Source: Magnolia sinica (lineage: Eukaryota; Streptophyta; Magnoliopsida; Magnoliales; Magnoliaceae). From it: a stretch of 64,000 nt of DNA. Numbering within the stretch: the first letter of the stretch is position 1; every line of letters begins with the position of its first letter. Below, in pieces: positions 6,076-62,032 of the stretch. Both the position numbers and the translations under genes were made by a program. The stretch covers positions 71,420,177-71,484,176 of the forward strand of contig NC_080582.1 of assembly GCF_029962835.1 (NCBI RefSeq). Reading direction: 5' to 3'. The notes under the pieces were generated by a model. The model had not been told where the DNA came from, did no database searches, and saw only the letters and a program-made list of their open reading frames with translations.

Positions 6076-6480
6076 TATGGCCCACAATGGGGTGATCTAA
6101 TTGATCCACCTTGTCGGTCAGCTTACCGTGGGCCCAAAAAGTCCTGACTTGGCCCCACATTAATGTATGCGTATAATCCATGCCGCCCATCCTTCTTGTC
6201 ATGTCATTTTAGGGCTAGGGGCCAAATATCAGCTTGATCTAGTGCTCGTGTGGCGCACATAATAGAAAATAATGGTAACTGTTGAAACATCAATGGATCA
6301 GATGTGGGACCAAGTCAGGACATTTTGAAAATAATGGTGACTGTTGAAACATCAATAATGATGACTTGGGCATTGTCCACTTCTAACAAACATCAATGTG
6401 GGCCCAAGTCAGGATGTTTTGTGCTTACGGCAAGGTGGCCAATAAGGTGGATGGATCAGATCACCCCATTGTGGGCCATA
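6076..6480. repeat. FB1 core between the arrays
   Basis: Contains diverged fragments of the arm unit in both orientations: GTGATCTAATTGATCCACC near 6092 and GGTGGATGGATCAGATCAC near 6447, and TGGGCCCAAAAAGTCCTGAC-type stretches. It is the turning point of the palindrome. Confidence 0.75.
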
Positions 6481-8374: not shown

Positions 8375-9737
8375 ATTATAAACTTTAAGAGGTTTGGCCT
8401 TTTGGGTATTAATATCACCTATCTAAACCGTCCAATGGAATTTGGGTCCAGTCCCTCCATGTCCCCATTCAAGGCAAAACACAACCATCGGATGATTCTA
8501 AGCATCCTTGACTGAGCTTAATTGCTATGATTAAATATCCACATTCATTCTTCATGCTTCTAACTGTAATGTTTAGATCATTTGATTAGTATAAACATTT
8601 AAAGGCAGTATGTGAAGAGCATACCAGACTTAATAGACCATCCACATAGGTGATGGGGATGCCAAGGAGTCCAAATGAAAGTATGTGCATGGAAAGATTT
8701 CCGTGAACTTACCTAATAAATCATTATTCTTCAGAGTTTAATACTGTTTATATATTTTATTTTTAAAAAAAAAAATTTTAAAAAACCAAATTAATGGTAT
8801 TAAAGTGGTTTTCATTCAGTTGGTAGACTAGTATGCAAGGAAAGACTTCCATGCCATTGATAAACTGAAAAATAAGCTCTGAAATGAAGTTCTAAAAAAT
8901 TAAATGATAATTTTGAAATAATTTTAGGAATATTTTAGTTAAAAGTGAAAACATATTTTAATGCACCACCACTTTCAGCTTCAACATTAATAAAGGAAAG
9001 AAAGCAAAAAAATAGACCCATATTTTCAGCGAAAATTAATTTAAGTACTTATTAATTTGAATTTGTCAAACCATCTAAATAGTATAAGTGTTAAAAATAA
9101 GTGATCGATGTTGAAAATAAGTTTTATCGAATGATACATTCATCCTCGTACAAATGCTGCTTTTGAGAAAGCACAGGAACCTTACTATTCTTTGTTGTGC
9201 TACTCTTAGGCTACTTACCGGCATTTTAAAGGTTGTCTCATTCATTGTGTCGGATTTTCCAGAGCCAATATTAGCTCAATTTAACTGAACATCTTGTGAT
9301 GCTAGGTATCAAACAAACCGAGAGACTGGGTTCGGGCAAATCAGGTCCTCTATCCAGCCATAAATTTTGAAAGATCATGTGAATGGCGAACGAGAGGGCT
9401 CCTTCCAATGGGGACTTTCATTTAAACGTGTGACAACCCACTTAGTTCAATAATAATTCAATATTAATAAAAAAAAATACTTTGACTATAGATGATAAAA
9501 TAATATATATGGATCTCTATACATGCGGCTTATAAAAAAAGAACAATGAAAGGAAAAAAATAACCAATGATCGTTTCGTCCTGCAGCAAAATAGTTACCG
9601 TCTCTACTAACTTCATAGGCAAGACAATCATTGGGAAATAATTGAATGTTTGTCTAGTTGTTGAGTCTCATTAAGTGAGATAATTGTTGGTAGTGGACGG
9701 ATCTTTGACAATCTTATGAGAAAGTCAGCATAATATG
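8375..9737. other. Intergenic, no gene
   Basis: AT-rich sequence with no credible reading frame. CATAGGCAAGACA near 9615 is echoed at about 14739, beyond the copia element that begins at 9738. The two therefore lay about 165 bp apart before that insertion. Confidence 0.5.
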
Positions 9738-20924: not shown

Positions 20925-21254
20925 TTGGTGGGCCCGCCATGATGTATTTTCCTTACATCCATGCCGACCATCCATTTTGAAAGCTCATTTTATGGCGTGA
21001 TCCCAAAAATGAAGCAGATCCAAATCTTAGGTGGACCACATCATAGGAAACAATGGTGATTGAATACTCACCATTAAAAATTTCTTGGGGGCCACCAGAA
21101 TGTTTATTTGCCATCCAACATGTTGATAAGGTAGCAAAGACCTGGATGAAGGGACCACACAAATATCAGCTTGATCCAAAACTTTTGTGGCCAACAAGAA
21201 GTTTCAAATGGTCAATCACCATTGTTTCCTGTGGTGGGGTTCACCTGAACTTTC
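20925..21254. mobile_element. MITE fragment of the GGGCCCNCCATGATGTAT type
   Basis: Starts at TGGGCCCGCCATGATGTATT and runs through CACCATTAAAAATTTCTTGG and the GTGGGGTTCACCTGA half. It stops at the copia insertion and does not resume beyond it, so its right end is missing. Confidence 0.6.
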
Positions 21255-28599: not shown

Positions 28600-30729
28600 T
28601 TTGTATTAATAAAATCTCATAACCAGCTCCAACGCATGTGTGTGGACCGCTTGCTTATTGGTCCATTCTGTTTCATGGGTCAGGTCACATTCACAGTGGC
28701 TCCTCATGATGGATGGCTTGAACTTGCACACAAGTACCACATTGGATGTGTAGCAAGCAATGTTAGAGGGACTGGGATCTATATGCATGTAGAATCAACC
28801 AACCTCCTCCATCGTGACACATACCACGATTGATAGTTAGAATTGATCGCTTAGGCAATATGACATCGGGTGCATCATCATGAAAATTTGCAATCACCTA
28901 ACTGTTATAACTATTTGACAGAGTCATAGAGGATTTTTTTTATTTTTTTTTCTCCTTCTTCTCCTTTTTTTTGTAGTAACCATTTTGAAGGGTGGTTAAG
29001 AGAATAGGCAGGTTTAGATTTAAACATTTCTTTCCCGCCCACTTATCTGATGATGGGTCCCAATAGATGAAATGTTAGGACATTTGGACTACTAGGTCAT
29101 TAATATGCATAGAAGTTGACAAATTACGCGGTTGTCATTAAAACTAACATGCCTGAGAGAAACAAACCAGAACTTATAAGGACTTAAACAAATTTATAGA
29201 GTACGGAGTGAACTAGACAAGACATTAACAACATAACCATTCACAAAATGAAGCAAAATTACAACAGTTTGATAAACACTCAATAACATTTGGAATTCAA
29301 TAAGCCAATCAAGATATATAAATCTGGAAAAAAAAATTGTTAAACTTAGATTTGCAAATTATCTATTCCCAATCTATCTATCGAGTAAGAAAGTTTTTCT
29401 TCTTTGAGAAATGACATTATGAAGAGACCCAAAGAGAAGTTCTATTAAGTGCAATCAGCTTTGCATTGAGTCCATTTGTAGCCATCGATCATTTGCCTAA
29501 AATAGTCAATTCTGCTGATTTTTGGTCTATTGCCCATCTGTGTGATTGTCCAATAAATCAATAGTCTAGATCATTGAACACAAGTGTACAAGTGGGATAT
29601 AGGTATTATGGCGTGCACTCCACAGATTCCATGAAGCATGCATCATAGTAGCATTTCTCTTCTTCTTATTATAAGGAAAAGTGGATTTCCTACGTAATAA
29701 GAAAGCTAAGTCACATGGGAAATGAAGAATTCATTTTAGCCAAAGAAAATTGGTTTCCTCATGCATCCTACTGTTTTCTGATCCCACCTGTACATATAAG
29801 CATATCATGTGCATCCACTAATTGAGTGGCCCACTTTGCATGGGACAAATTGATGGCTGGATAAGCATGTTTTAGCCATTCATTTGTTTTGTACAATGTG
29901 GCCCACTTGATAGATCAACTGTTAAACCTGACTGATTACTGAACCATGCTGTTGACAGAGCAGGATCTACATGATGAACAGCTTGGTTCTTGCACATCTT
30001 TTCTATCTACAGACATGTGATGGCAGGTAAAGCAGTTGGATTGTGATGCTTAAGATTTTCAAATCTCAATACATCCTTGAGCATTCCAAAAAAGGATATT
30101 GTGTTTTAAGAGCGTCGGGGTTCAATTGGTTGGCTCATGCTGATGCTATTATAGATGAATTGCAGTCCATGTGGCTGCATGCTAAGATGAGCAGAACCAT
30201 AGCTCTAGTGGACACAGTCCAAAAATAGATGGAAGCCAAAATGGTTAGACTGGTGCCACTTATCCAATTGGACATGAATGGAATGGTTGAGTAGATGGGT
30301 GATTTAGGTCATCCAATCATACATTCATGTGGGCATTCATTGATAGTCAAAGTAATGTCCTCACATCCACCAACAATTAACATACAAGGAGACAATATTG
30401 CCTAGAGCCAAAAGCCAACTGGCCAAGGGATTGTGCAGTAGAATTTTGGATTGGGAGTTAGGTGATACAAGGGGTGCAACTCGGGCGGGTCAACCCGACC
30501 CAACCTGTAACTTTCCCAACCCAAAGTCCTCTATACACAACCCGACCCAAATACATGTGATTATAACACACCTATGCAAACTGAAAAAATTATCAATTGA
30601 TATAACTAAAAGTTAGAATGTGTGTGATTGAAATAAACCAAAGAAGAAAGAAAGCTCACCCACCTTTGTAGAGATGCCGAATTTGTCTTTCCATGCATTT
30701 TTGTTGGTGGAAGAAACAAGCAACCAAAC
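28600..30729. repeat. NLR1 downstream flank, duplicated near NLR2
   Basis: Lies 3' of NLR1 and is collinear with about 58308-62030, the region 3' of NLR2. Shared landmarks: GGGTCAGGTCACATTCACAG, AACTATTTGACAGA, GAGAAATGACA, CTCTAGTGGACACAGTCC, AGAGCCAAAAGCCAACTGGC. Receptor and flank were therefore duplicated together. The two copies later received different insertions (see 59228-59702 and 61678-61842). No independent gene seen. Confidence 0.8.
30471..30560. repeat. GGGGTGCAAC / GGGTTGGGTTG-type repeat fragment
   Basis: GGGGTGCAACTCGGGCGGGT followed by CCCGACCCAACC steps, resembling the start of a common plant MITE type. The paralogous copy at about 61437-61650 is longer, so this one is truncated. 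Confidence 0.5.
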
Positions 30730-33465
30730 TCAGCTGGCTTTTATTTCGATGGAGGGTATATGCTGAATCTTATGCCAATCCTCTCCGCCGTTTTCCCTCA
30801 TTCCAACTTCGAATTCAGTGGGCATGTTCCACACCTCAATTTTCTTGAGGGTAGTCACGCGTTGCAATCCTTCCGGAAGCATCTTTAAATGAGAGCATTC
30901 ACGAATCACCAAATGTAAAAGCCTCGGCATCGCTCCTTCCTCCACTCTCCACTCCTCTAAATTGGATAAGGCTGAAACATGCAAGGATTCAAGTTGAGGA
31001 AACCCTTGCGTAGAGCAGACCATTTTCGTTCCCATGTATGAAAAATACAATCTGAGAATCCGAAGGTTCGGTAGTTTCCCCAACGTCGCCATTGGGTCTT
31101 CCATTAACTTGGAGTATTCCAAGGTAAGCTTGGTGAGGTGAGGTGAGAATTCGTTTGACTCAGGTAGCTTCTCTAACGTTCCCCTCAAAAACATCTTCTT
31201 CAGATGCAGGTGATGTGAAAAAGGCAAAAACACTGGAATAGTACCCAACCATCGCAACCTCAAATACTGGAGGCGGTCCAATTTGGGAAGAGAGATGGAC
31301 AATCCCTTTCCATGCCTACTCCAGAAGATCCCCCATATTTCTAATTCCTTGAGATTAGTTAGCTTCCCCAAGCAACCCTCTATCCAATCGCCAGCCTTCA
31401 CATGTTTAAGAGTCTGGAGATTAACTAAACAATCAAGCCCAAGTGATGGACGCCCCACTATTTTAGACCACACACCTTTACTTATTAAGCTTCCAAGGGG
31501 CACATCCACATGCCTTAATTGTTTCATCTTCCAAATACAACTGGGTATGCAGACTTGGTATGAACCTTCTTCTACATGTAGCGTTTCTAAATCGCGAAGA
31601 TTGCTTATGGATGATGGAAGGCTTATTTTGTATCTATCCACCTTGAGGCCAAGGTATCTCAAGTGGATTAGCCTACCTATTTCGTTTGGAAGCTTTGGCA
31701 TCGATATATTAGATATATCTAAATATAAAACCCTGAGCAAATTGAATCCTCTGTAAAGAAACTTCTCTTGCTTTTTCCCAGGCCATCCACTGTCTAAAGA
31801 GACGCACAACACAGAACGAAGGTGCGGGTTGGCACGATTTAAAGAAGTATACTTACTAGTGGCATGATGAATAACAAGCCTGCGGGCTTTTGATGGAAAG
31901 AGAGCATTTGTATCTCCATGATGAACATCAAGGAATTTATCTTCCTTGGCTTTTGAAATCAAGAGTTCTCGTAGGAGATCATGGATGCGGCAGCTTTTAA
32001 CTCTGCCACTGGAATGTCTTTTCGCCACTTGAATCAGACTTCTATGGATCAGCTCCACCAGACAATCTTCTGCAGCTTCCTCAACTGTTTCGTCCCCTGT
32101 TTGCTCTACAAATCCTTCTGCGACCCACATCTGAATCAATTTCTTGGCACATATCTCTTGGTCCTCTGGAAAAACACCAAAGTAGAGAAAGTATGGTTTC
32201 AGACCAAAGGGTAGATCTTCATAGCTTAAAGCTAATATTCTTGTGATTCGAGATTCATCATCAATGAATTGCAAGCTAATTCTCCTGAGTACTTTCTCCC
32301 ACTCATTTGGATCCGGTTCTTTCCTTGATAGTAGTCCCCCCATGACAACAATAGCAAGAGGCAGACCACAGCATTTTGCCACAATCTTTTTTCCTAGCTT
32401 CTCTAAATTTTGCTGGTAATGAATACCCTGTTCTAAGAATGCATTCTTACAAAATAATGTCCATCCCTCTTCATCTCCTAAATGCCGCAGCTCGTGAGGA
32501 GAGCACCGGGAATCTGCATATGAAGCTACATCTCTATTGCGGGTGGTGAGTAGGACTCGACTTCCGTTGTTCGTATTTGGAAAAGCAGCCACTAAAGAGT
32601 CTCATGCTTCAGTCTTCCATATATCATCTAACACTATAAGATATCTCCTCTCCTTCAAATGATTGAAAAGCTTCTCCCTCAATTGAACAGCATTCATTTT
32701 CTCCACCATCTCAAGCTCTTCTTTAGTAAGAGTCATGATGCATTTTATAAGGCTTTGCAAAAGATCTCTCACAACATATTCCTGAGATACAAAAACCCAA
32801 GCACAACAATCAAAATGTTTCTTAACAGCATTGCTGTTATAAACTTTGATGGCAAGAGTAGTCTTGCCAAGACCGCCCATTCCAACTACAGAAATCACAC
32901 AACGTCGTGAATTTCCCTCGACCAACCGTCCCACCAATGTCTTTATGTCTTCTTCAAAACCGACCACTTCCGTCTCTCCAAATACAGGAGAAGTTCGCCT
33001 TTGCTCATGCAGACTTTCACCTCCGGAACTGCTACGTTCTTCGACTTTGCTAACATCTATAATTCCATATGTCAGCCTACTCGCAGCGGTCTCCTGGATT
33101 TTATTCTTTATCCGTTCGATCTCATTGCCCACCTCATGTCGAGCCGATAATTCAACATTGATGAACCTGCACCTCTTGAAGAAACCAACGAATCCACTTT
33201 TCCTTTGCCGTTCTATTTTGAGGATGAAGGTGTCGATAACGTCTTCCGCATCATAAGCAACATCTCTCACTTCCGCCACCCAATTCTTCACTCTCTCATC
33301 ACCGCTTTGTTTTGTATCCGCATCTTTCAAGAAGCACTGCATCCGCTTCAATTCCCTCTCGACCCACTCAACCTGATCACGCACTTCATAGAGATAAACT
33401 GCCTCTTGAACTAGGAAATCGCTAAGTTTTCCTAACACCAAGGAAACAGCAGCCACAACAGCCAT
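30730..33465 (-). pseudogene. NLR1: CC-NBS-LRR immune receptor with one in-frame stop
   Basis: An intracellular pathogen-sensing receptor of the CC-NB-ARC-LRR class (RPP13/RPP8-like by motif style). The chosen start is the Met at 33465. An upstream Met at 33516 would only add an Arg-Glu run encoded by a CT microsatellite. The frame covers 911 codons, a normal length, apparently intronless. N-terminal Rx-type coiled coil with EDVID at residues 74-78. NB-ARC motifs: P-loop GMGGLGKTT 195-203, kinase-2 LIVLDDIW 276-283, RNBS-B SRVLLTTRN about 302-310, GLPL 367-370, YFLYFGVFPED about 425-435, and an MHD variant reading IHD about 494-496. LRRs follow to the C-terminus (LLRVLYLDIS, LIHLRYLGLK and others). 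Codon 288 is TGA (32602-32604) where NLR2 has TGG (KTEAWDSL), so only the CC and the front half of the NB domain would be made. Everything else is open, so the stop looks recent, or may be a sequencing error. Confidence 0.9.
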
Positions 33466-33475
33466 CTTCTTTATC

Positions 33476-33497
33476 CTCTCTCTCTCTCTCTCTCTTA
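33476..33497. repeat. (CT)n microsatellite in the NLR1 5' leader
   Basis: A CT run on the plus strand (GA on the coding strand) about 11 bp upstream of the NLR1 start codon. GA/CT runs are frequent in plant 5' leaders. It explains the Arg-Glu extension if the upstream ATG is used. Confidence 0.85.
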
Positions 33498-33682
33498 TTC
33501 TCACAAGAAATTTCAATCACTTATTCAAAACTCACGGATGCAGAATGATAAGTTTCCAAAGGAATATACAGTATTGCATTGGGCTATTGGGCTATTTCAT
33601 TTTTGAGTCCGGATCCTCTGTTATCAGGTCAACAGAGAATTCCTGATACCCTAATTCTCATTGGTCCACGTCACCACTCACT

Positions 33683-34705
33683 TGCTTTTTCCTTCAAGCG
33701 GATCGGTGGTGCTCGAAGACGAGCGCTGACACTCCTCTGAACTCCGAGTTGTATGAACGGTTCAAAAGATATCAAAGTTACATGGGCCCCACAGTTACAT
33801 ATTTATTATATCCACAACGTTCATCCATATTTCGAGATCATTTGGGAGCATTATCAAAAAAAAAGAAATCATATCCAAAGATCAACTAGACCACACCACA
33901 AAGACCAACGGGAAAATTGATTTTCACCGTTAAAAATTTTGTAGGGCCCACCGTAACATTTATTTTCCATCCAATCTATTCATAAGGTCACAAAGACCTG
34001 GATGAAGAGGAAAAACAAATTTCATAATAATCCAAAACTTTTATTACCCCTAAAAGGGTTTCAATGGTAGACGTTCAATCCTCCACAGCCTTTTACAGTG
34101 TGGTCCACTTGATAGCTAGATCTATCTTATTTTTCGCCTCAAGCCTTGATACAAGTTCATCGAATATATGGACGGTTTGGATATAACACATACCAGGATT
34201 ACAATAGTAAAAAACTAAAATAATAATAAATAAATAGGCCAGGAACTTATGGCTACAGTGTTTTATATAGCTACGGATTATAACCGTAGCCATAGTCGTA
34301 GCCCCTGCCATTTCAATGTCCTTTTATATGTATTGAAGGTCTTTCGATATGTATCGAAGGTCTTTCAATTAATCGAAAAAGGTCCAGAACTGTCCAGCGA
34401 GTTTGCCTAAAAAATCCTGCAATTTTCGATACATATCGAAGAGTATTCGAATGTATCGAAGGTGATATAACCAATAGCTACGGATTATAACCGTAGCCAT
34501 AACTGTAATCTGTGCCAGTTTATGAAATTTATTTTTATTTTTTATTTTTTATTTTTTTACATGGGTAAATTTATTCTACATACAATTTTCTCTAATACAT
34601 ATTTATATAAATATGTATATATAAGCATATAAAATTTTTTCTCTCTCTTTTTTTCATTTATTTCTTTATTCATTTAACAAGAATATCTTCTAAACCAAAA
34701 TTAGT
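33683..34705 (+). repeat. FB2 left inverted arm
   Basis: The outer half is MITE-like (GTAGGGCCCACCGTAACATT). The inner half has two copies of the near-palindrome AGCTACGGATTATAACCGTA (near 34267 and 34481) and TTCGATACATATCGAAG steps. It ends about 220 bp upstream of the NLR1 start codon. Confidence 0.8.
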
Positions 34706-34811
34706 TACTTGACAAACCCTATATGATTTCGGGGTAGGAGAAGCTACTTTAGCCAACCAACCTGGTTATGTTTCAAGATTCCATCAGATCTATGGTTGAA
34801 AATCCATTTTA
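34706..34811 (+). mobile_element. Gypsy LTR fragment inside FB2
   Basis: GGGGTAGGAGAAGCTACTTT, AGCCAACCAACCTGGTT and CCATCAGATCTATGGTTG match a 100-bp segment of the solo LTRs (about 15835-15925 in the plus copy). It is absent from the equivalent place on the right arm, so it breaks the symmetry. Old fragment. Confidence 0.6.
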
Positions 34812-36540
34812 TTCACTTCGCGGTCAATTTCAATCAGTTCGCAGTCAATTTCATTCATTTCATTTACTTCGTGATCAATTCCATACATTTCACGATCAAT
34901 CCCAGCGATTCCGTTTTGATTCACGGTCATTTCCATGCATTTCACGGTCAATTCCCTTCACTTCACGGTCATTTCCATGCATTTCACAGTTAATCGCTTC
35001 ACTTCACGGTCATTTCCATGCATACCATGGTCATTCCCGCCTATTCCGTGTTGATTCACGGTCATTTCGGCGCATTTCATGGTCATGCCCCTTCACTTCA
35101 CGGTCATTTCCGCGCATTTCATGGTCCAATCGCCTCACTTCACGGTCATTTCCATGCATATCACGGTCATTCCCGCCTATTCCATGTTGATTCACGGTCA
35201 TTTCGGCGCATTTCACGGTCATGCCCCTTCACTTCATGGTCATTTCCGCGCATTTCACGGTCCAATTGCTTCACTTCACGGTCATTTCCATGCATATCAT
35301 GATCATTCCCCCTATTCTGTGTTGATTCACGATCATTTGGCGCATTTCATGGTCATGTCCCTTTACTTCATGGTCATTTTCGGGCATTTCGCAGCACAAT
35401 CACCTCACTTCACGGTCATTTCCATGCATATCACGGTCATTCCCGCCTATTCCGTGTTGATTCACGGTCATTTCAGCGCATTTCACGGTCATGCCCCTTC
35501 ACTTCACGGTCATTTCCATGCATTTCACGGTCCAATCGCTTCACTTCACGGTCATTTCCATGCATATCACGGTCATTCCCGCCTATTCCGTGTTGATTCA
35601 CGGTCCTTTCGGCGCATTTCACGGTCATGCCCCTTCACTTCATGGTCATTTTCGCGCATTTCGCGGTACAATCGCCTCACTTCACGGTCATTTCCATGCA
35701 TATCACGGTCATTCTCACCTATTCTGCGTTGATTCACAGTCATTTTGGGGCATTTCACGGTCATGCCCCTTCACTTCACGGTCATTTCCGCGCATTTCAC
35801 GTCCAATCGCTTCACTTCATGGTCATTTCCATGCATTTCACGGTCATGCCCCTTTACTTCAGGGTCATTTCGGCGCATTTCACGGTCCAATCGCGTTCAC
35901 TTCACGGTCATTTCCACGCATTTTGCGGTCTAATCGCTTCACTTTAGGATCATTTCTATGCATATCACGGTCATTCTCGCATATTCCATGTTGATTCACG
36001 GTCCTTTCGGCGCATTTCACAGTCATGCCCCTTCACTTCATGGTCATTTCCACGCATTTCGCGATCCAATCGCTTCGCCTCACGTCATTTCCATGCATAT
36101 CACAGTCATTCCTGCATATTCCGTGTTGATTCACAGTCATTTCGGCGCATTTCACGGTCCAATCGCCTTCACTTCACGGTCATTTCCGCGCATTTCGCGG
36201 TCCAATCGCTTCACTTTACGGTCATTTCCATGCATATCACGGTCATTCCCGCATATTCCGTGTTGATTCACGGTCCTTTCGGCGCATTTCACGGTCATGC
36301 CCCTTCACTTCATGGTCATTTTCGCGCATTTCGCGGTCTAATCGCTTCACTTTATGGTCATTTTCATGCATATCACGGTCATTCCCACATATTCCGTGTT
36401 GATTCACGGTCCTTTCGGCGCATTTCACGATCATGCCCCTTCACTTCACGGTCATTTCGGCGCATTTCACGGTCCAATCGCCTTCACTTCACGGTCATTT
36501 CCATGCATTTCACGGTCATGCCCCTTCACTTCACGGAATT
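34812..36540 (+). repeat. FB2 minisatellite array, forward
   Basis: Basic unit about 21-22 bp (CACGGTCATTTCCATGCA). From about 35040 the units form a higher-order repeat of about 136 bp marked by TATTCCGTGTTGATTCACGG. The forward unit contains no stop codon in any of its three frames, which yields overlapping His/Phe/Ser-rich open frames that I reject as genes. Confidence 0.9.
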
Positions 36541-36589
36541 CTAGTCTCAGTTAAGCATTTCCTTTCCCAAAAACCATGTTTTGTTCAGT

Positions 36590-37332
36590 CATCTTGATAT
36601 GTCGACAGTTGCCGCGTTTCAATATATCGAATATCAGGCGATATATCAAAATTAGTCCAAAACTGTCCAGAGACAAAATGATGTTTTAAAACAATTTTTC
36701 GATTATATCGATATAGTTTCGATCAATCGACTGAGGAAATTTCGATATCAATCGAAAGACACTCGATTATAAAAACAGATTTCACTGAATTTTTGTAAGG
36801 AAAAAATAAAAGTACGCTTCGATGTTATTGAAGTCTAATTGATGACATCGAGCTTAAGTTGTCGATAACGTCGAACTCTAGTCGATGATATTTAACTAAG
36901 TTATTGTTACAATGGTTCGATACATCGCCCATCAATCGATATCATGTGTAAATATATCGAGTATATTTCGATTTATCGAAAATGGTCAAAATATGTCCAG
37001 AGAAAAAATGCGTTTCTAAAAGGAATTATCGATAATATCGATAAGAGTTCGATATATCGAACTGACGATATATCGACTAAATTACGATATATCGAAAATG
37101 TTCCTCAATTGTCCAGAGACACACTGCTCTTCTGAAACGAATTATCGATAATATCGACACTCCGTCGATTTATCGAATCTTCGATATATCGATTAAACTT
37201 CGATTTGCACGTCCATATATATCGAATGGTTTACGATATATCGAATAACACCAAAAACTGTCCAGAGATGAATGCTCATTGAAAGTGATTTTTCGATATT
37301 ATCGATTAATATTCGATATATCGAAGAACTTG

Positions 37333-37335
<3 letters not shown>
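36590..37335. repeat. TCGATATATCGA-rich tandem repeat, copy 1
   Basis: Degenerate units of about 115-150 bp, each with a TGTCCAGAGA motif (near 36667, 36994, 37109 and 37258) followed by ATTATCGATAATATCGAT and several palindromic TCGATATATCGA motifs. Direct-orientation partner at 40000-40625. Shorter pieces of the same type occur in both FB2 arms. Confidence 0.8.

Positions 37336-37405
<70 letters not shown>
37336..37405. repeat. (TA)n microsatellite
   Basis: About 70 bp of uninterrupted TA, seeded from a GATATATCGA motif of the neighbouring repeat. Confidence 0.95.
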
Positions 37406-37407
<2 letters not shown>

Positions 37408-37873
37408 AAGTAGACTCGATTATAAAAGATTTGAAAAGCCATAAAACCTTTGCCTGACCGTTGCCCTGTTTCGATATATCGAGATACCACCCACATGTCT
37501 GCACAATTTCGCATTCTTCACGTAATTTTTACACAAACGTCTATCCCAAGAGCACCAACAGGTCTGATCTTACCCCATTCATGTTGGGGACTCTCTATGC
37601 CGTCAGCCAAAAAGTGGAACTGTGTCTGCCTAGTGGTTTCACTCTAGTTTCGGCACCACCCGAGGTGGTTTGTCAATGAATATGGGAATGACTTTTCTCT
37701 GTAACAGTTTTATAGTCTTTATTTGTCGTTCATTTATGCAGCGATCTATAATTTTCACCATACTCTTGAATTCTAGATGACAATTCCATCGGTTCTTTCT
37801 GTAGACGTCTTGACTACGATGAATCCTGACCCCTGGTCCAGTTATAGACTTTTTACTACCAACCAAAATCTCA
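37406..37873. other. FB2 centre, single-copy-looking DNA before the captured fragment
   Basis: Lower AT content than the repeats around it, no tandem structure. It may be flank (intron or leader) carried along with the captured gene fragment. No frame continues from the fragment into it: a TGA lies about 19 codons upstream. Confidence 0.4.
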
Positions 37874-38930
37874 TTGCCTGGGAAAGGGTTTCAAGTGGAG
37901 GAGGTGGGCCACCATTCGCTGATCGAGAAGCTTGATTTAAATGAAGAAGGGGGAGGAGATGGTGATGGAATCGAGGGTGTGTTGTTGTATGGGTCAATTG
38001 AGAATGACTATTCATCATCATCTGGTAAAGAATCTCTATTGATTGAAGGGCTCAAAGAAGGATATGATAATGGACTGGAGGATATGATATTGCATCGGTC
38101 AATAGAGAAAGGGTCTCTGTCATCATCAGGTGAAGGATTTGAAGTGGAGGTGGACCACCATCCACCGATAAAAAGGATTAATCTGCATGAACAAGGGGTA
38201 GGAGATGATGACAAACGCGAGGATATGTCATTTGATGAGTCAATAGAGAGAGGGCCAGTTTCATCATCTGGTGGAGGATTTGAAGTGAAGGAGGTGGGCC
38301 ACCATCTTAAAATTGAGAATATCTATTTGCATGAAGGGGGAGAAGGAGATGGTAGTGATTTAGAGGGTGTGTTATTCCATGGGTCGATAGAGAACGAACC
38401 GCTATCATCATCTCGAAAAGTATTTGAAGCGGAGGGAAGCCACCATCCACCAATCAAGGGTCTTGATTTACATGAAGGGGCAGAAGGAAATGGTAATGCA
38501 CTGGAGGGTATGTTACTCCATGGATTCATAGATAAAGGGCCGCCATCATCTTCTGGTGAAGGATTCCAAGTGGCGGAGGTTCCCTACCATCTGCCTAGCA
38601 AGGAGCCCGGTTTACATACAGATGGGGGTGCAGGAGATGTCAATGGGCGAGAGAGTGCATCATTCAATACATCAAATGGGAAAGGATCCCAACCGTTGCC
38701 TAGTACAGGAAGTGAAGTTGACAAGGTGGGCCATCATCAGCAGATCGAAGAACTTGGGTCACATTTGGCAACCACAAACGGTGTGGTAGCACAGCCAAGG
38801 AAATGTTCCCAATCTGGCCAACAAAGGCATTGGATGACAGGAGGTAGTCGATCATGGACAATTTCGATTTCTTTCAAGTGTGGGAAGGTTGGACACTCGA
38901 AGTGCACGGAATTGTCGGAATTGACCGTGA
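37874..38930 (+). CDS. Captured fragment encoding an acidic repeat protein, unrecognised
   Basis: An open frame of about 350 codons with six or seven imperfect repeats of 47-48 residues (DNA period about 141-144 bp). Consensus elements: SSSGEGFEVEEVGHH, PIKGLDLHEGGEGDGN, LEGMLLHGSIEKGP. The protein would be acidic and low in hydrophobic residues. No signal peptide, membrane segment or known domain is seen, and I do not recognise the family. It has no upstream in-frame ATG (the frame opens at TTG), so it is probably an internal exon or a fragment. At its 3' end the frame runs into minisatellite DNA after GKVGHSKC. A 65-bp piece (38592-38657) is repeated at 39745-39808. Position in the middle of FB2 suggests capture by the element. 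The steady reading frame across the repeats suggests a real protein origin. Confidence 0.45.
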
Positions 38931-39690
38931 AATGCATGGAATTGTCCATGAAGTGAAGGGAATTGACCGTGAAATGCATGGAATTGTCCGTGAAGTGGAG
39001 GGAATTGACGGTGAAATGCATGGAAATGACCGTGAAGTGAAGGGAATTGACGGTGAAATGCATGGAAATGACCGTGAAGTGAAGGGAATTGACTGTGAAA
39101 TGCATGGAATTGTCCATGAAGTGAAGGGAATTGACCGTGAAATGCATGGAAATGACTGTGAAGTGAAGCGGAAGGTCCTTCATTGACCGTGAAAAGCATG
39201 GAATTGTCCGTGAAGTGAAGGTTATTGACCGTGAAGTGAATGGAATTGACCGTGAAATGCATGGAAATGACCGTGAAATGCATGGAAATGACCGTGAAGT
39301 GAAGGGAATTGACCGTGAAATGCATGGAAATGACCGTGAAGTGAAGCGGAATCGCCGGGAATGACCGTGAATGCATGAAAATGACCGTGAAGTGAAGGGA
39401 ATTGCCCGTGAAATGCATGGAAATGACCGTGAAGTGAAGCGGAATCGCCGGGAATGACCGTGAATGCATGAAAATGACCGTGAAGTGAAGGGAATTGACC
39501 GTGAATCAACACGGAATAGTTTGGGATGACCGTGAAATGCATGGGAATGATCATGAATTGAAGCGAATTGACCGTGAAATGCATGCAAATGACCGTGAAG
39601 TGAAGGGAATTGACCGTGAAATGCCTCGAAATGACCGTGAATCAACACGGAATAGTTTGGGATGACCGTGAAATGCATGGGAATGATCAT
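38931..39690 (-). repeat. FB2 central minisatellite array
   Basis: Same basic unit as the outer arrays, in the orientation of the right one (GACCGTGAAATGCATGGAA), mostly as 42-bp dimers without the 136-bp order. It follows the captured fragment directly. The minus-strand frame across it is an artefact of stop-free units. Confidence 0.9.
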
Positions 39691-39880
39691 GAAGGTCCAC
39701 AAGTCTCTGAAGAACTTATGTTCATTTACACTGCCATTAAATCCTAGCAAGGAGCCCGGTTTACATACAGATGGGGGTGTAGGAGATGTTAATGGACGAG
39801 AGAGTGCGACAAGGTAGGATTAGATATATCGAAAAAGGTCCACAAGTCTCTAAAGAACTTATGTTTATTTACACGATTTG
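39691..39880 (+). repeat. Duplicated piece of the captured fragment
   Basis: 39745-39808 repeats 38592-38657 almost exactly (CTAGCAAGGAGCCCGGTTTA). It lies between two copies of GGTCCACAAGTCTCT (about 39692 and 39837), which look like a local duplication around the insertion point. Confidence 0.7.
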
Positions 39881-39999
39881 AGGTCTTCGTATCGATCCAT
39901 AGTGGGGGTGGATAACATAGAGTGTGTACCGACATGGGTGTGTACTAACAAGTTAACTTTAAAAAAAAAAAAGAAAAAAAAAAGAGTAAAAATTACCCT

Positions 40000-40625
40000 T
40001 CGATATATCGAACAGTACAAGATATATCAACATTTGCTGCATTTCGATATATCGAATGTCAAACAATATATCGAAATTAGTCCAAAACTGTCTAGAGACG
40101 AAATGATGTTTTAAAACAATTTTTCGATTATATCGAGATAGTTTTGATAAATCGAATGAAGAAATTTCAATATCAATCGAAAGACACTCGATTATAGAAC
40201 CGAATCCATTGAATTTTTATAAGGAAAAAATAAAAGTACGCTTCGATGTTATCGAACTCTAATCGGTTACATCGGCTCAAGTTGTCGATAACATCGAACT
40301 CTAGTCGATGCTATCGAACTAAGCCATCGTTACAACGGAACGATACATCACCTTGAAATCGATGTCATATGTCGATTTATCGACTATATTTCGATTTATC
40401 GAAAATGATCAGAAAATGTCCACAGACAAAATGTTTTTTAAAAGGAATTATCGATAATATCGAGAACATTTCGATATATCGAAGAGACGATATCTCGACT
40501 AAATTTCGATATATCGAAAATGTCCCTCAATTGTACATAAACACATTGCTCTTCTGAAACGAATTATCGATAATATCGATATTCCGTCGATATATCGATT
40601 AAACTTCGATTTGTATGTGCATATA
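40000..40625. repeat. TCGATATATCGA-rich tandem repeat, copy 2
   Basis: Direct repeat of 36593-37190 with the same order of landmarks (AAAATGATGTTTTAAAACAA, GAAAGACACTCGATTATA, AAAAGTACGCTTCGATGTTA). The captured fragment and central array therefore sit between two same-direction copies. Confidence 0.8.
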
Positions 40626-41280
40626 TATCTTTCATAATCTCCTGGTGAAAGGAGTGAATGGGAACAATGTACAATCTCAGATTATAAATGAAATTGTTTC
40701 CACTTTAGTTTACCTTGTGTAGTATTGCATTATGTGTGTTGGATTAATTATGTCCTCATCATAACCGCACCAAAAGTGCAGCTTCTTACAGGTTATGAAC
40801 TTTTCTATCTGTTTTTTATTTGCATTTGTATGAATATTTTCGAAACTTGATATGATTGATATGCTTGAGATGCGATATGAGTTATCAAAATTATGACTTA
40901 ATGGTGTTGCATGTTTTTGAGATGTGATTTGTTCCTGCTTAGAAAAAGCCATGTATTTGATTTGTTCCCTGCTCACTCAATTGGAGTTGTTTGCTTGAAA
41001 TAGAGTTCAGTGCTAATTTTGATTGTTGATGGTGGCCGAATGTATCCTTTGATTTCCTTACTGCAATATTTTTTTGCTTATTTCACAAGAATAGCAGTGG
41101 GAACAAACTGTTTTATTTTTTCCTGATTTAATTGTACTAACAAGATTCTAGAACCACCTTTGAGTTCTCTGGTTTTCATCCAATCCACACACAAACAGTA
41201 TAGAAGCAACTAAAGAGAAGGGACTTCTCTATGAGTACCTCTATACACAGCCACACGCCCAATCTTGCACGTATGTGGGA
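40626..41280. other. FB2 centre, single-copy-looking DNA
   Basis: T-rich sequence without tandem repeats or a credible reading frame. It resembles plant intron or 3' UTR DNA and may have been captured with the fragment at 37874-38930. Confidence 0.35.
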
Positions 41281-41430
41281 CATACAAGCTGTTCACTAAG
41301 ACTGCATGGATGATGATGATCATCATCATCTAAACTTTATCCCAATTAATTGAGGTCGGCTACTCTAATCATGTTCTACCATTCTACTCTATCAAGGACC
41401 ATGTCCTCGGACACCAGAGATAATCATGTT
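41281..41430 (+). mobile_element. SINE-like fragment (possibly Au-like)
   Basis: GATGATCATCATCATC, then TTATCCCAATTAATTGAGGT, CGGCTA and ATTCTACTCTATCAAGGACC. From memory this core recurs across many plant genomes in Au-type SINEs. No clear head or tail was found, so the family name is tentative. Confidence 0.45.
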
Positions 41431-41589
41431 CTATCCGATGTTAATCTTGAAATATCATATTCTTTTCTATTCAGTAGCAATTTGTCGATTTCACTTGTAG
41501 AAGCAGCATTACAGCCCAAAAAGGGGGAGTGTATAGTCTTTCCTTAACATGCATCACCAACATACAAATCCTCCTTGCATTTGGATTGA

Positions 41590-44284
41590 ACATGATATGC
41601 GCCGAAATGACCGTGAATCAACACGGAATAGGTGGGAATGACCGTGATATGCATGGAAATGACCGTGAAGTGAGGCGAATGGACCGTGAAATGCGCAGAA
41701 ATGACCGTGAAGTGAAGGGGCATGACCGTGTATCAACACGGAATAGGCGGGAATGACCGTGATATGCATGGAACTGACCGTGAAGTGAAGCGAATGGACC
41801 GTGAAATGCGCGGAAATGACCGTGAAGTGAAGGGGCATGACCGTGTATCAACACGGAATAGGCGGGAATGACCGTGATATGCATGGAACTGACCGTGAAG
41901 TGAAGCGAATGGACCGTGAAATGCGCGAAAATGACCGTGAAGTGAAGGGGCATGACTGTGTATCAACACGGAATAGGCGGGAATGACCGTGATATGCATG
42001 GAACTGACCGTGAAGTGAAGTGATTAGACCGTGAAATGCGTGAAAATGACCGTGAAGTGAAGGGGCATGACTGTGAAATGCACCGAAATGACCGTGAATC
42101 AACACGGAATAGGCGGGAATGACTGTGATATGCATGGAAATGACCGTGAAGTGAGGCGATTGGACCGCGAAATGCGCGGAAATGACCGTGAAGTGAAGGG
42201 GCATGACCGTGAAATGCGCCGAAATGACCGTGAATCAACACGGAATCGCTAGGAATGACCGTGATATGCATGGAAATGATCGTGAAGTGAGGCAATTGTA
42301 CCATGAAATGCGCAAAACTGACCGCAAAGTGAAGGTGCATGACCGTGAAATGCGCCGAAATGACCGTGAATCAACACGGAATAGGCGGGATGATCGTGGT
42401 ATGCATGGAAATAACCGTGAAGTTAGGCGATTGGACCGTGAAATGCGCGGAAATAACATGAAGTGAAGGGGCATGACCGTGAAATGCGCCGAAATGACCG
42501 TGAATCAACACGGAATAGGCGGGAATGACCGTGGTATGCATGGAAATGACCGTGAAGTGAGGTGATTGGACCGTGAAATGCACTGAAATGACCATGAAGT
42601 GAAGGGGCATGACCGTGAAATGCGCCGAAATGATGGTGAATCAACACAGAATAGGCAGGAATGACCGTGGTATGCATGGAAATGACCATGAAGTGAGGCG
42701 AATGGACCGTGAAATGTGTCGAAATGACCGTGAAGTGAAGGGGCATGACCATGAAATGCGCCGAAATGACCGTGAATAAACACGGAATAGGCGAGAATGA
42801 CCATGGTATGTATAAAAATGACCGTGAAGTGAGGCGATTGCCGTGAAATGCATGGAAATGACCATGAAGTGAAGTGTATTGACTGAAATGTTGCGAAAGG
42901 ACCGTGAATCAACACGGAATAGTCGGGAATACCGTGATATGCATGGAAATGGCCGTGAAGTGAAGCGATTGGGCCACGAAATACACAGAAATGAACAGTG
43001 AAGTGAAGGGGCATGACCGTGAAATGCGCCAAAATGACCATGAATCAACACGGAATAGGCGGGAATGATCGTGGTATGCATGGAAATGACCGTGAAGTGA
43101 GGCGATTGGACCGTGAAATGCGCGGAAATGTCCGTGAAGTGAAGGGGCATGACCGTGAAATGCGCCGAAATGACCGTGAATCAACACGGAATAGGCGGGA
43201 ATGACCGTGGTATGCATGGAAATGACCATGAAGTGAGGCGATTGGACCGTGAAATGCGTGGAAATGACCGTGAAGTGAAGCGATTGGACCTTTAAATGCA
43301 CCCAAAATGACCGTGAATCAACACGGAATAGGCGGGAATGACTGTGATATGCATGGAAATGACCGTGAAGTGAAGCGATTGGACCGTGAAATGCACGGAA
43401 ATGACCGTGAATCAACACGGAATAGGCGGGAATGACCGTGATATGCATGGAAATGACCGTGAAGTGAGGCGATTGTACCGCGAAATGCGCGAAAATGACC
43501 GTGAAGTGAAGGGGCATGACCGTGAAATGCGCCGAAATGACCGTGAATCAACACGGAATAGGCGGGAATGACCGTGATATGCATGGAAATGACCATGAAG
43601 TGAGGCGATTGTACCGTGAAATGCGCGGAAATGACCGTGAAGTGAAGGGGCATGACCGTGAAATGCGCCGAAAGGACCATGAATCAACACGGAATAGGCG
43701 GGAATGACCGTGATATGCATGGAAATGACCGTGAAGTGAAGCGATTGGACCGTGAAATGCGCAGAAATGACCGTGAAGTGAAGGGGCATGACCGTGAAAT
43801 GCGCCGAAATGACCGTGAATCAACACGGAATAGGCGGGAATGACCGTGATATGAATGGAAATGACCGTGAAGTGAGGCGATTGGACCGTGAAATGCGCCG
43901 AAATGACCGTGAAGTGAAGGGGCATGACCGTGAAATGCGCCGAAATGACCGTGAATCAACATGGAATAGGCGGGAATGACCGTGGTATGCATGGAAATGA
44001 CCGTGAAGTGAAGCGGAATCGGCGGAATTGATCGTGAAATGCATGGAAATGACTGTGAAGTGAAGGGAATTGACCATGAAATGCTTGGAAATGACCATGA
44101 AGTGAAGTGGAATCACCGGAATTGACCGTGAAATGCATGAAAATGATCGTGAAGTGAAGGGAATTGACCATGAAATGCATGAAAATGATCGTGAAGTGAT
44201 GGGAATTGACCATGAAATGCATGGAAATGACCGTGAAGTACGGGGAATTGACCGTGAAATGCATGGAAATGACTGTGAAGTGAA
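41590..44284 (-). repeat. FB2 minisatellite array, reverse
   Basis: 2.7 kb of the inverted unit (ATGACCGTGAAGTGAAGGGG) in 136-bp higher-order repeats; AATCAACACGGAATAGGCGG recurs near 43317, 43545, 43681 and 43817. The last 280 bp uses simple 21-bp units, mirroring the outer part of the left array. High similarity between adjacent 136-bp units near 43.3-44.0 kb suggests recent unequal exchange. Confidence 0.9.
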
Positions 44285-45289
44285 ATTTTGGTTTAGGAGA
44301 TATTCTTTTAAATGAATAAAGAAATAAATGAAAAAAGGAGATAATTTTTTTATATGCCTATATATACATATTTTTATAAATATGTATTAGAAAAAATTGT
44401 AGGTAGAATAAATTTATCCACGTAAAAAAATAAAAAAATAAAAATTTCATAAACTTGCATAGCTATGCTATGGTTATAATCCGTAGCAATTGGTCATATC
44501 ATCTTCGATACATATCGAATACTCTTCGATGTGTATCGAAAATTGCAGGAGTTTTGAGGCAAACTTAGACAGTTTCGGACCTTTTTCGATTAATTGAAAG
44601 ACCTTCGATACATATCGAAAGACCTTATACATATCAAAGGACATATTAAAATGGCAGGGGCTATCCATGGCTATGGTTATAATCCGTAGCTATAGAAAAG
44701 ACGGTAGAAGTTACTGACCTATTTATTTATTATTATTTTATTTTTTATGTTGTAATCCCCACTGCTTTTTGTGGGTCCTAACATGAGATATGTGTTATAT
44801 TCAAACCGTCCATATATTCGATGAACTCGTATTAAGGTTTGAGACGAAAAATAAGACGGATCTAGATATCAAGTGGACCACACCGTAAAAGGCTGCGAAG
44901 GATTGAATGTCTACCATTGAAACCCTTTCGGGAGTTCACCGAAGTTTTGGATCATTACAAATTTTGTTTTTCCTCTTCATCCAGGTCTTTGTGACATTAT
45001 GAATATATTGGATGGAAAATAAATGTTATGGTGGGCCCTACAAAAGTTTCGACGGTGAAAGTCAATTTTCCCGTTGCTCTCTGTGGTGTGGTCCATTTGA
45101 TCTTTGGATAGGATTATTTTTTTTTGATAATGCTCCGAAATGATCTCGAACTATGGATGAACGTTGTGGATATAATAAATACGTAACTGTAGGGCCCATG
45201 TAACTCTGATATCTTTTGAACCGTTCGTACAACTCGGAGTTCGAGGAGTGTCAGCGCTTGTCTTCGAGCACCACATGAAGGAAAAAGCA
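44285..45289 (-). repeat. FB2 right inverted arm
   Basis: Mirror of 33683-34705. It begins at AATTTTGGTTTAGGAGATAT and ends with CGAGCACCACATGAAGGAAA and AAGCA. Confidence 0.8.
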
Positions 45290-45922
45290 GGGGCATTTTC
45301 GACCTTTGGCAAGTCATCCGTACAACTGGGGCTTATTTTTGCAAAGTAAAATAAGGTAGGCTTGGTCTCGTAAATGGGCCATAAATGGGTCGTACGGTGG
45401 GAAGAAAATAGAGAAAATACTCCCAACCCTCTGTTTCGTACACTGAGGATAACTTGAAAAGTGTACTGGCTCAGTTCGTTCTGTACGAGTAGGGCCTATG
45501 ATTAAGCAATCGAAACCGTTCGTCTGATGGCTGACATTATAAATGGGGATTTCAGATTGGAAAATTCTAGCCCCTTCAACCTTATCAAAGTTTTGGATCA
45601 ACAAACCTTGGCCCCACTTGCATCTAACTGGAAGCTTAAACGGTTAAAATATGCAATATCTGGACCACCCACAGCTTACCATGTCTTCGTTCTCGCTTGC
45701 TTTAGGACGTCGATTGCGTGGTGAAGCGTGCGGACCGCGTGCGTGTTATCTACCTCGGATTTATGGGCATTTACATTGGATTTGAAAAAATCAGACAGGT
45801 CCTTAAGCGAAATATGACTTGCTTTCAGTTATTCCATAATATACTTGACTTGCTTTCGGTCATTCGATAATGTAGAGGCGGATTCGTCGTGCTCCGACTA
45901 AGGACTATCTTGGAAGGGCGTG
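45290..45922. other. Intergenic, no gene
   Basis: No recognisable gene or element. A 65-codon open frame at 45527-45724 has no recognisable features. Confidence 0.4.
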
Positions 45923-48095: not shown

Positions 48096-48617
48096 CCTGG
48101 CTACTCCCCCGACGCCAGCCCCGGGGCTGGTGGTTGGTGCTCGGTGGGCTCACCATGATGTATGTGTTTCATCCATTTTTACGTATCATTTTATGGCTTG
48201 ATCCAAAAAATGAGAGGTATATAAATCTCAGGTGGACCACACCACATGAAAACAATAGTGGTTGTATATCTATCATTAAGACCCTCCTGAGGCCCAGTGT
48301 ACTGTTTATTTGACATCTAATATCTTGATTAGGTCATACAGGCCCAGATGAAGCCCATATGAAGGGAAAAAACAAAAATCATCTTGATCCGAAACTTTTA
48401 TGGCCGCAATGTTTTTTAATGGTCGACACTCATTCAACACTGTTTCATATAATGTGGTCCACTTAAGATTGGGATATACCTCATTTTTGGTCTCATACCG
48501 TAAAATGATCCGTAAAAATAGATGGACGGCATGGATGAAACACATACATCATGGTGGGTCCCACGGAGCACCGACCACCAGCCATTGGCTGGTGTCAGGG
48601 GGAGTAGCCAATCCGCG
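48096..48617. mobile_element. hAT-like MITE, GGAAACGGATT family (copy 2)
   Basis: Subterminal inverted repeats GGCTACTCCCC / GGGGAGTAGCCAATCC and the paired GGTGCTCGGTGGGCTCAC / GTGGGTCCCACGGAGCACC. The left terminus is worn and no target duplication is visible. Same family as 3023-3553 and 50391-50880. Confidence 0.7.
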
Positions 48618-48775
48618 TCCTTCCCCACTGCTTCCAGTGGTGTGGTGTGGTCGACATGAGCTTGGGATCTGCCTCTTTTTTTGGGCTCATGCCCTAAAAT
48701 GATCTGGAAAAATGAATGGACGGTGTGGATAAAATACATACATCATTGTGGGGTCCACAGTGTATACACTACAAC
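48618..48775. mobile_element. Half MITE of the same group
   Basis: GTGGTGTGGTCGACATGAGC, CCTAAAATGATCTGGAAAAA and ATCATTGTGGGGTCCAC correspond to the right half of the neighbouring MITE type. The left half is missing. Confidence 0.5.
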
Positions 48776-49439: not shown

Positions 49440-49983
49440 GAAATCGGATTGTGTACTGAGTTACTCAGTACGCTCTTATCGTACTGAGTAAACTCAGTTG
49501 GGCCTACTGCGAATGCATGTGATTTATCCACGCCGTCCATTCGTTTTTCTAGATTATTTTATGGGTTCAACCCAAAATTGATGCATATACAAAGCTCAAG
49601 TGAACCATACCAATGGAAAAAGTGGAGGTATTGATTTCAACTGTTGAAAAATTTCTAAGGCCCCAGTGATGTTTATTTGTCATCCAACCTGTTCATAAGA
49701 TCAGAAAGACATGGATGAAGGGAAAGGACAAATATCAGCTTGATCTAAAACTTCTGTTGTCCCCAAGAATTTTTCAACGGTAGATGTTCAATTCACACTG
49801 TTTCCGGTGGTGTGGTCCATTTGAGGTTTGGATACATTCCATTTTTAGAGTGTAACTTAAAATTATGTTTTAAAAGAGATGAACGGAGTGGATACAATGA
49901 ATGAATGACACTGGGGCCCAATGAATTTACTCAGCACGCTTACCGTACTGAGTTACTCAGTACTCAGTACGCAATCCGCTTCC
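49440..49983. mobile_element. MITE with GTACTGAGT terminal sub-repeats
   Basis: Inverted ends: GAAATCGGATTGTGTACTGA at the left, and GGAAGCGGATTGCGTACTGA as complement of the right. Each end carries two to four GTACTGAGT/ACTCAGTAC motifs. GGTAAAGACG occurs at 49431-49440 and 49984-49993 and gives a target duplication of 9-10 bp (one base overlaps the drawn left end). Internal sequence is of the common GTGATGTTTATTTGTCATCC group. Confidence 0.8.
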
Positions 49984-50390: not shown

Positions 50391-50880
50391 AGGAAACGGA
50401 TTGGCTACTTCCCTGCCAATGGGTGGTCGGTGCTCTGTGGGACCCACCATGATGTATGCGTTTCATCCATGCCTTCTGTATATTTTTCTATATCATTTTA
50501 TGGTATAAGATAAAAAATTAGATATATCACAATCTCAAGTGGACCACATTACATGGAACAGTATTGAATGAAGGTCGACCATTGGGAGGCATAAAAGTTT
50601 TGGATCAAGCTGATCTTTGGTTTTTCCCTGTATGACCTAATAAACATATTGGATGTCAAATAAACAGTACAGTGGGCCTCAGGAGGATTTTAATGGTGGA
50701 TATCCAATCACTATTGTTTTCCCGTGGTGTGGTCCACTTGAGATTTATATCCCTCTCATTTTTGGGATCAAGCCCTAAAATTATCTTTAAAAATGGATGA
50801 AACACATACATCATGGCGGGCCCACAGAGCACCGAGCACCAGCCACCGGGCTGGTGGCGGGGAGTAGCCAATCCGTTTCC
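50391..50880. mobile_element. hAT-like MITE, GGAAACGGATT family (copy 3)
   Basis: 490 bp, with perfect inverted ends GGAAACGGATTGGCTAC / GTAGCCAATCCGTTTCC and an exact 8-bp target duplication CCAATTTA (50383-50390 and 50881-50888). This is the best-preserved copy and fixes the ends of the family. Confidence 0.88.
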
Positions 50881-61842: not shown

Positions 61843-62032
61843 TCTTTTCAATTGATACTAGTAAAAGCTAGAATGTGTGTGATTCATGTTGTCAATCAAA
61901 GCAAGGGAAATCAACCAAAGAAGAAGAAAAGCTCGCCTGCCTTTGTAGAATGTCCTTCCATGCGTTTTCCGTTGGTGGAAGAAACTATCAAGAAAAATCA
62001 CTTGCCTTTGATAGCCCACCATAGCAGCAACA

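What the first reader, a model, noticed from the sequence alone, without database searches (positions are those of the whole stretch)
33683..45289. An 11.6-kb nested palindrome with arms, mirrored 136-bp higher-order arrays and a gene-fragment core
Symmetry holds at several levels: outer arms, simple 21-bp minisatellite zones next to them, then 136-bp higher-order arrays. The centre contains duplicated palindromic repeats and a captured coding fragment. Symmetric order suggests growth by inverted duplication of a smaller ancestor.
Basis: partly seen in the sequence, partly recalled or inferred. Interest (0 to 1): 0.78.

Follow-up and report, generated by a model that had tools for sequence, protein, structure and literature searches.

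The report
Foldback Mutator transposon in Magnolia sinica
The giant palindrome is an old, partly damaged copy of a jumping gene of the Mutator type whose long mirrored ends are filled with short tandem repeats and which carries a stolen piece of a plant gene; it belongs to a large family in this Magnolia genome, and is a striking but recognisable kind of element.

Summary
In detail: 33683-45289 is an inverted repeat with mirrored 21/136-bp arrays and a core holding a coding fragment. It is a truncated, non-autonomous, foldback-type Mutator-like element (MULE) in Magnolia sinica (scaffold lengths match the published assembly). Other copies show the real terminus (GAGAAATTTRCGACTGTACG...) about 120 bp outside the left edge; the right arm runs to about 45400. 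The genome has 1037 such ends (controls 0). Of 20 paired copies, 15 carry 9-10-bp target duplications; mispaired controls 0 of 380. A 28.5-kb copy on C2, with the same ends, a perfect 9-bp duplication and the same 21-bp units, holds an open 829-aa MuDR transposase: the likely source of mobility. The 'gene fragment' comes from the last exon of a host GRF/CCHC zinc-finger gene (123 matching stretches); its recent changes look neutral. The symmetry is that of terminal inverted repeats; local inverted duplication is not supported (left arm 95.1% like an arm elsewhere, 90.5% like its partner), though inverted duplications do occur inside arrays of relatives. New family of a known kind; array function untested.

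The parts
33683..34800 (+). left arm: outer, non-array part of the MULE terminal inverted repeat, truncated (outermost ~120 bp with the terminus missing)
   Evidence: 39 of 39 other scored genome matches start at query base 34 or 36 (window 33683/33685); outer TIR present in other copies; absent here
34806..36538 (+). left subterminal array: 21-bp units (TTCACGGTCATTTCCATGCAT-like), then 136-bp higher-order units
   Evidence: TRF; 42 units in one orientation
36596..37223 (.). ATCGAT-rich core block, copy 1 (direct repeat of 40021-40629, 84.9%)
   Evidence: related blocks in L039
37874..38902 (+). passenger coding fragment from the last exon of a host GRF/CCHC zinc-finger gene (open frame; 343 aa used as query)
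38905..39694 (-). internal array of the same 21-bp unit, same orientation as the right arm
39743..39807 (+). second copy of a 65-bp piece of the coding fragment (38594-38658)
   Evidence: 95.4%
40021..40629 (.). ATCGAT-rich core block, copy 2
41585..44284 (-). right subterminal array: 115/136-bp higher-order units, then 21-bp units
   Evidence: TRF; 65 units in one orientation
44290..45400 (-). right arm: outer part of the terminal inverted repeat, including most of the outer TIR missing on the left; last ~16 bp not recognisable

Best explanation
This is a degenerate, non-autonomous copy of a foldback-type Mutator-like (MULE) DNA transposon family. The mirrored arms are its terminal inverted repeats (outer TIR plus subterminal minisatellite arrays with higher-order units); the core carries a fragment of a host zinc-finger gene. 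SHOWN: shared termini, convergent pairing, 9-10-bp target duplications, and one copy bounded by family termini and a target duplication that holds an open MuDR-type transposase and the same 21-bp units. INFERRED: the transposase of such copies binds the ends and moves the non-autonomous copies by cut and paste; arrays grow and shrink by unequal exchange or slippage, with occasional inverted duplication inside them; the gene fragment was picked up in an ancestor and rode along. The window copy later lost its left terminus and can probably no longer move.
For: Family terminus in 27 of 29 flanks read; 498 + 539 TIR ends with <=2 mismatches, controls 0; convergent pairing, 17 of 21 neighbouring exact ends within 35 kb against a random mean of 0.13, maximum 2 in 1000 draws; 9-10-bp duplications with <=1 mismatch in 15 of 20 paired copies against 0 of 380 mispairings; C2:9757075-9785550 with family termini and perfect duplication CCGGGAAAA, 21-bp units after the gene and an 829-aa stop-to-stop frame matching MULE 6e-19, Transposase_mut 2.6e-12, DBD_Tnp_Mut 1.9e-11 and SWIM 2e-7; a second transposase match, C4:71198917 (75%, one stop), inside the 32-kb pair with perfect duplication ACCGTTGAC; a degenerate transposase on C17, 71-81% like the C2 one over most of its length, between two arrays of the unit.
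Against: The window copy shows no terminus on the left and no target duplication, so its own transposition is inferred from relatives. 5 of 20 paired copies lack a recognisable duplication, and one of the 15 is an A-run (L049/L050). About 6.5 of 28.5 kb of the C2 element was read; its outer TIR was compared with the window's over 118 bp (87%), one base of its right terminus deviates, and units were seen only on the 3' side of the gene (the 2 kb around its left end had one 18-mer match). The two arrays beside the C17 transposase lie in the same, not mirrored, orientation, and termini for it were not established. No transposition, binding or expression was tested.
Confidence: 0.95

Rival explanations
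1. A local inverted duplication (or satellite growth from a smaller palindrome) unrelated to transposition made the symmetric structure.
For: Near-mirror order of arm, simple array and higher-order array; relatives L039 and L076 contain alternating, inverted array blocks; in L073 own arms are 98.7% alike and in L074 97.1%; none of the 8 arms of L073-L076 is closer to the window's left arm than its own partner.
Against: Defined shared termini with 9-10-bp target duplications; the left arm's nearest relative is at another locus, 95.1% against 90.5% for its own partner, and arms of L042 and L076 also have closer relatives elsewhere; dispersed convergent copies. Caveat: the comparison arms L010-L038 were picked by similarity to the left arm, and the right arm has a longer branch (0.082 against 0.037).
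Confidence: 0.04
2. The subterminal arrays are docking platforms, kept in helical phase, for a transposase or an anti-silencing protein, as tandem motifs are for VANC proteins of Arabidopsis VANDAL elements. (This adds a function to the best explanation rather than replacing it.)
For: Spacing between successive CACGGTCA motifs clusters at 21, 31, 42, 52, 63 and 73 bp, i.e. multiples of ~10.5 bp: 94.5% of 1558 spacings, and 86.9% leaving out 20-22 bp against 28.6% for a flat spread; units are found beside the transposase genes; a second MULE in the window has its own, unrelated arrays.
Against: 42 and 63 are trivial multiples of 21, and the 31-bp unit may be one event copied by higher-order spread, so the spacings are not independent; element 2 uses 23-bp units; no binding data; no VANC-like gene was sought.
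Confidence: 0.25
3. The mirrored structure is an assembly artefact.
For: Long inverted repeats and arrays are hard to assemble; reads were not examined here.
Against: Similar architecture recurs at other loci with target duplications (L073, L074, L076); arms and arrays of the window copy differ by about 10-11%, unlike a mirrored read; no N in the window; ONT-based assembly.
Confidence: 0.02

Closest known systems
Tm1, Mutator/Foldback elements of root-knot nematodes (PMC3169594; passages read)
   Same: Composite terminal inverted repeats with internally redundant short tandem units; 8-10-bp, mostly 9-bp, target duplications (45 of 53 complete elements there); non-autonomous groups plus transposase-bearing copies; named Mutator/Foldback by its authors
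   Different: Tm1 units are ~14 bp and the elements in the passages read are about 1 kb (amplicons 0.9 and 2.3 kb); here arms reach ~3 kb, with 136-bp higher-order units and a captured host exon
Tetris, foldback element of Drosophila virilis (PMC4079207; abstract and part of the discussion read)
   Same: Foldback structure with tandem repeats inside the TIRs, 8-10-bp target duplications, suggested Mutator superfamily
   Different: Repeats of ~220 bp; no transposase-bearing copy found there, whereas a candidate was found here
MULEs with multiple long TIRs and Pack-MULEs of plants (PMC3310237; passages read)
   Same: Plant MULEs with repeated terminal sequence, one family carrying and amplifying a gene fragment; replication slippage proposed
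   Different: There whole TIRs are duplicated; here a 21-bp unit inside the TIR forms long arrays with higher-order units
VANDAL elements and VANC proteins of Arabidopsis (PMC10398659; passages read)
   Same: Mutator-like elements with short-motif tandem repeats in noncoding regions that expand and contract
   Different: VANDALs have degenerate TIRs and a VANC gene; here TIRs are very long and no such gene was sought

Membership tests
Mutator-like elements (MULE) | 9-bp (8-11) target site duplication | tested here: met
   15 of 20 paired copies have 9-10 bp with <=1 mismatch, 0 of 380 mispaired controls; C2 copy perfect 9 bp. Not testable for the window copy itself (truncated)
Mutator-like elements (MULE) | shared terminal inverted repeats | tested here: met
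   27 of 29 flanks show the terminus; 1037 ends genome-wide; convergent pairs
Mutator-like elements (MULE) | MuDR-type transposase in an autonomous member | tested here: met
   C2:9757075-9785550, 829-aa frame with DBD_Tnp_Mut, MULE, Transposase_mut and SWIM; activity not tested. tblastn of this protein finds nothing in the window, nor in any other fetched locus over 900 bp except the C17 ones
Foldback elements | long composite TIRs with internal tandem repeats | tested here: met
   L073 and L074: arms of ~3 kb at 91% and 90%, with 136-bp arrays (L074)
Pack-MULE | carries a fragment of a host gene and lacks a transposase | tested here: met
   Fragment inside convergent TIR pairs, e.g. C1:124856141 and C1:133555079; 16 of 31 fragment loci on C1-C5 (the host exon counted among the 31) have an inward exact end within 20 kb; likely parent exon C5:105620131-105621276 without arrays in 14 kb with a GRF match upstream; no transposase in the window
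VANDAL/VANC system | degenerate TIRs | tested here: not met
   TIRs here are long and recognisable
VANDAL/VANC system | element-encoded VANC anti-silencing protein binding the repeats | not tested
   No search for a VANC-like gene was made; binding is not testable with these tools

The most novel reading that the evidence does not exclude
The 21-bp/136-bp arrays are not by-products but a helically phased, multi-site platform for an element-encoded protein (transposase or anti-silencing factor), so that two unrelated MULE families in one window have independently built TIR arrays as protein-docking 'landing strips' whose length tunes mobility or escape from silencing.
Probability: 0.2. Interest if true: 0.65.

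Novelty: new member of a known kind. Interest (0 to 1): 0.42.

Why it matters
It names a large repeat family in Magnolia that could otherwise be filed as satellite, segmental duplication and 'gene' separately: one transposon family may account for many of the 11,609 exact unit copies, for giant palindromes, and for over 100 stretches matching one zinc-finger exon. It supplies a candidate transposase, termini and target duplications, so that the old question of why foldback elements fill their ends with tandem repeats can be tested by binding assays, and it warns gene annotators about amplified zinc-finger fragments. The element sits just upstream of an NLR immune-receptor gene, so effects on that gene can be examined.

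Tried and rejected
Rejected: the arms ending at 33683/45289 (copies continue outward). Rejected: the coding stretch as a conserved element gene. Among 20 of the 24 copies aligned (L099-L102 dropped as diverged or partial; I had picked the copies and had included all the stop-free full-length ones, so they are no random sample), changes unique to one copy look neutral (omega-like 1.07), the consensus has a stop at codon 110 (10 of 20 copies have it) and 5 of 20 are open. Against this: changes shared by several copies give 0.61 (2.45% of simulations as low), and the median pairwise dN/dS over all 276 pairs of the 24, host exon included, is 0.62, so constraint in the ancestor or host is not excluded. 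Rejected: the parent being topoisomerase 3-alpha, which I recalled as a GRF/CCHC protein: none of 10 topoisomerase-domain matches lies on C5. No Pfam or PDB match to the 360-aa window frame. In six partial mid-regions of long copies I saw no transposase among frames of 110 aa or more (by eye; confirmed by tblastn), but one of these elements, on C4, has a transposase match outside the part read; the 28-kb C1 copy holds retroelement frames (gag_pre-integrs 4.7e-15; rve 1e-6, below its cut-off). Papers: the listings showed none that I recognised as this family; the M. sinica paper's main text holds 'mutator', 'mule' and 'tandem repeat' 0 times.
Full report
Where it is. The window is C10:71420177-71484176 of a 1.84-Gb genome. 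Its scaffold lengths 141,926,363, 92,164,922 and 73,752,208 (C1, C8, C17) equal the maximum, N50 and N90 scaffold lengths printed for Magnolia sinica (PMC10999834, passages read).

What is in the window. Left arm 33683-34800, left array 34806-36538, core, right array 41585-44284, right arm 44290-45400. The arrays are 21-bp units organised into 136-bp units (six 21-bp steps plus 10 bp; also 94, 115 and 178 bp). The core contains two direct ATCGAT-rich blocks, a coding stretch and a third array.

Family and termini. A 341-base query from the left edge gave 40 scored matches out of 6013 candidates; all 39 others begin at query base 34 or 36, i.e. window 33683/33685. Reading outward in the 29 of these 39 that were fetched shows, in most, a further ~120 bp of shared sequence; 27 of 29 end in GAGAAATTTRCGACTGTACGACC (up to 4 differences). 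The window's right arm carries this outer TIR except its last ~16 bp; the left arm lacks it, and it occurs nowhere else in the window.

Mobility. A 30-base TIR-end pattern (<=2 mismatches) occurs 498 times forward and 539 reverse, reversed controls 0. Among 96 of the 100 exact sites listed (C1-C5), neighbours within 35 kb are 17 (+,-), 2 (-,+), 2 (-,-) and 0 (+,+); random placement gives 0.13 (+,-) on average; the four C6 sites form two more (+,-) pairs. I read the flanks of these 19 pairs and of L042/L077: 15 of 20 have a 9-10-bp duplication with at most one mismatch, 0 of 380 mispairings do. One of the 15 is an A-run. Complete copies L073 and L074 (6776 and 6991 bp) are largely palindromes, with arms of ~3 kb and 91% and 90% identity including the arrays.

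Transposase. A diverged locus on C17 carries unit arrays and a broken MuDR-type transposase (2 of 5 frames tested match: DBD_Tnp_Mut 1.1e-9, SWIM 5.9e-4). Its SWIM piece has 150 scored matches out of 1097 candidates. One, C4:71198917, lies inside the 32-kb pair with duplication ACCGTTGAC. Another, on C2, lies in a 28,476-bp element, C2:9757075-9785550, with family termini and duplication CCGGGAAAA on both sides, 21-bp units downstream of the gene (14 matches to the 18-mer with <=4 substitutions in 2 kb, shuffles 0.01) and an 829-aa stop-to-stop frame with MuDR domains. On the other side of the gene, 2 kb around the left terminus had one such match. This is the best candidate for the autonomous partner; activity is inferred, and about 6.5 kb of the 28.5 kb was read. 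No part of this transposase is found in the window, nor in any other fetched locus over 900 bp except the C17 ones (tblastn). The genome has at least 150 MULE-domain matches (150 of 1104 candidates scored).

The coding fragment. The 343-aa query has 123 matching stretches (118 of 446 candidates scored), some of them two pieces of one locus; five nearly full-length ones, the window's included, have no stop. One match, C5:105620131-105621276, has no arrays around it, starts after what reads as a splice acceptor with what I read by eye as the end of a GRF zinc ribbon, and ends in an intact CCHC knuckle (zf-CCHC 1.3e-4); a partial GRF match lies 15.8 kb upstream on the same strand. It is the likely host parent, 78.5% identical to the window fragment over the aligned part. 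Of 20 element copies compared, 10 share a stop at codon 110 and 5 are open; changes unique to one copy fit neutrality (1.07), shared changes do not quite (0.61, 2.45% of simulations as low). I read it as a passenger, with older constraint possible.

Origin of the symmetry. In a comparison of 41 arms (L014 and L042_L are the same copy) the window's left arm is 90.5% like its partner (rank 28 of 40) but 95.1% like L018; L042 (88.4% own, 97.8% L015) and L076 (86.1% own, 92.5% L042_R) behave alike, whereas L073 and L074 have near-identical arms (98.7%, 97.1%). Most comparison arms were chosen for likeness to the left arm; the 8 arms of L073-L076, chosen by the TIR-end pattern, are all further from the left arm (77.2-88.9%) than its partner is, and the right arm's branch is twice as long. 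Rank alone therefore proves little; but the existence of closer relatives elsewhere speaks against a recent local duplication. Arrays of L039 and L076 alternate orientation in blocks and contain inverted duplications, so that process occurs in the family.

Possible function of the arrays. CACGGTCA motifs are spaced in multiples of ~10.5 bp (94.5% of 1558; 86.9% without 20-22 bp). This is suggestive only, since spacings are inherited through the higher-order units. Published parallels are additional transposase sites in Galileo TIR repeats, as told in the Tetris paper, and VANC binding to tandem motifs.

Noticed in passing
window 4144-8373: A second, unrelated MULE-like element with mirrored arrays (23-bp units, 113-bp higher-order units), termini GRGAAATTGACCGTAC and a perfect 9-bp duplication TATTATAAA at 4135-4143 and 8374-8382; a 20-mer of its unit occurs 502 + 466 times in the genome, controls 0.
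   Followed up: partly
window 32602-33516: A CNL-type NLR gene start (Rx_N 3.4e-31, NB-ARC 3.7e-29) on the minus strand, its 5' end ~170-220 bp from the element's truncated left edge; the region 30590-32712 has a second copy at 61845-64000 (82.8%).
   Followed up: no
window 3022-3551, 20926-21243, 48098-48622, 49513-49893, 50392-50879: Several further stretches share sequence with the arms or each other and look like related MULE termini or MITEs.
   Followed up: no
L099 973-1404; L082 4091-4885: L099 matches the 'putative plant transposon protein' Transposase_32 (3.2e-7, below its cut-off) in a stretch that also holds unit arrays; L082 had no Pfam match there.
   Followed up: no
L062 (C4:36755711-36755780): The right flank of this copy reads like the outer TIR of another copy (GGAAGAAAAGCAGGGGCATT), suggesting nested insertion of one member into another.
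   Followed up: no
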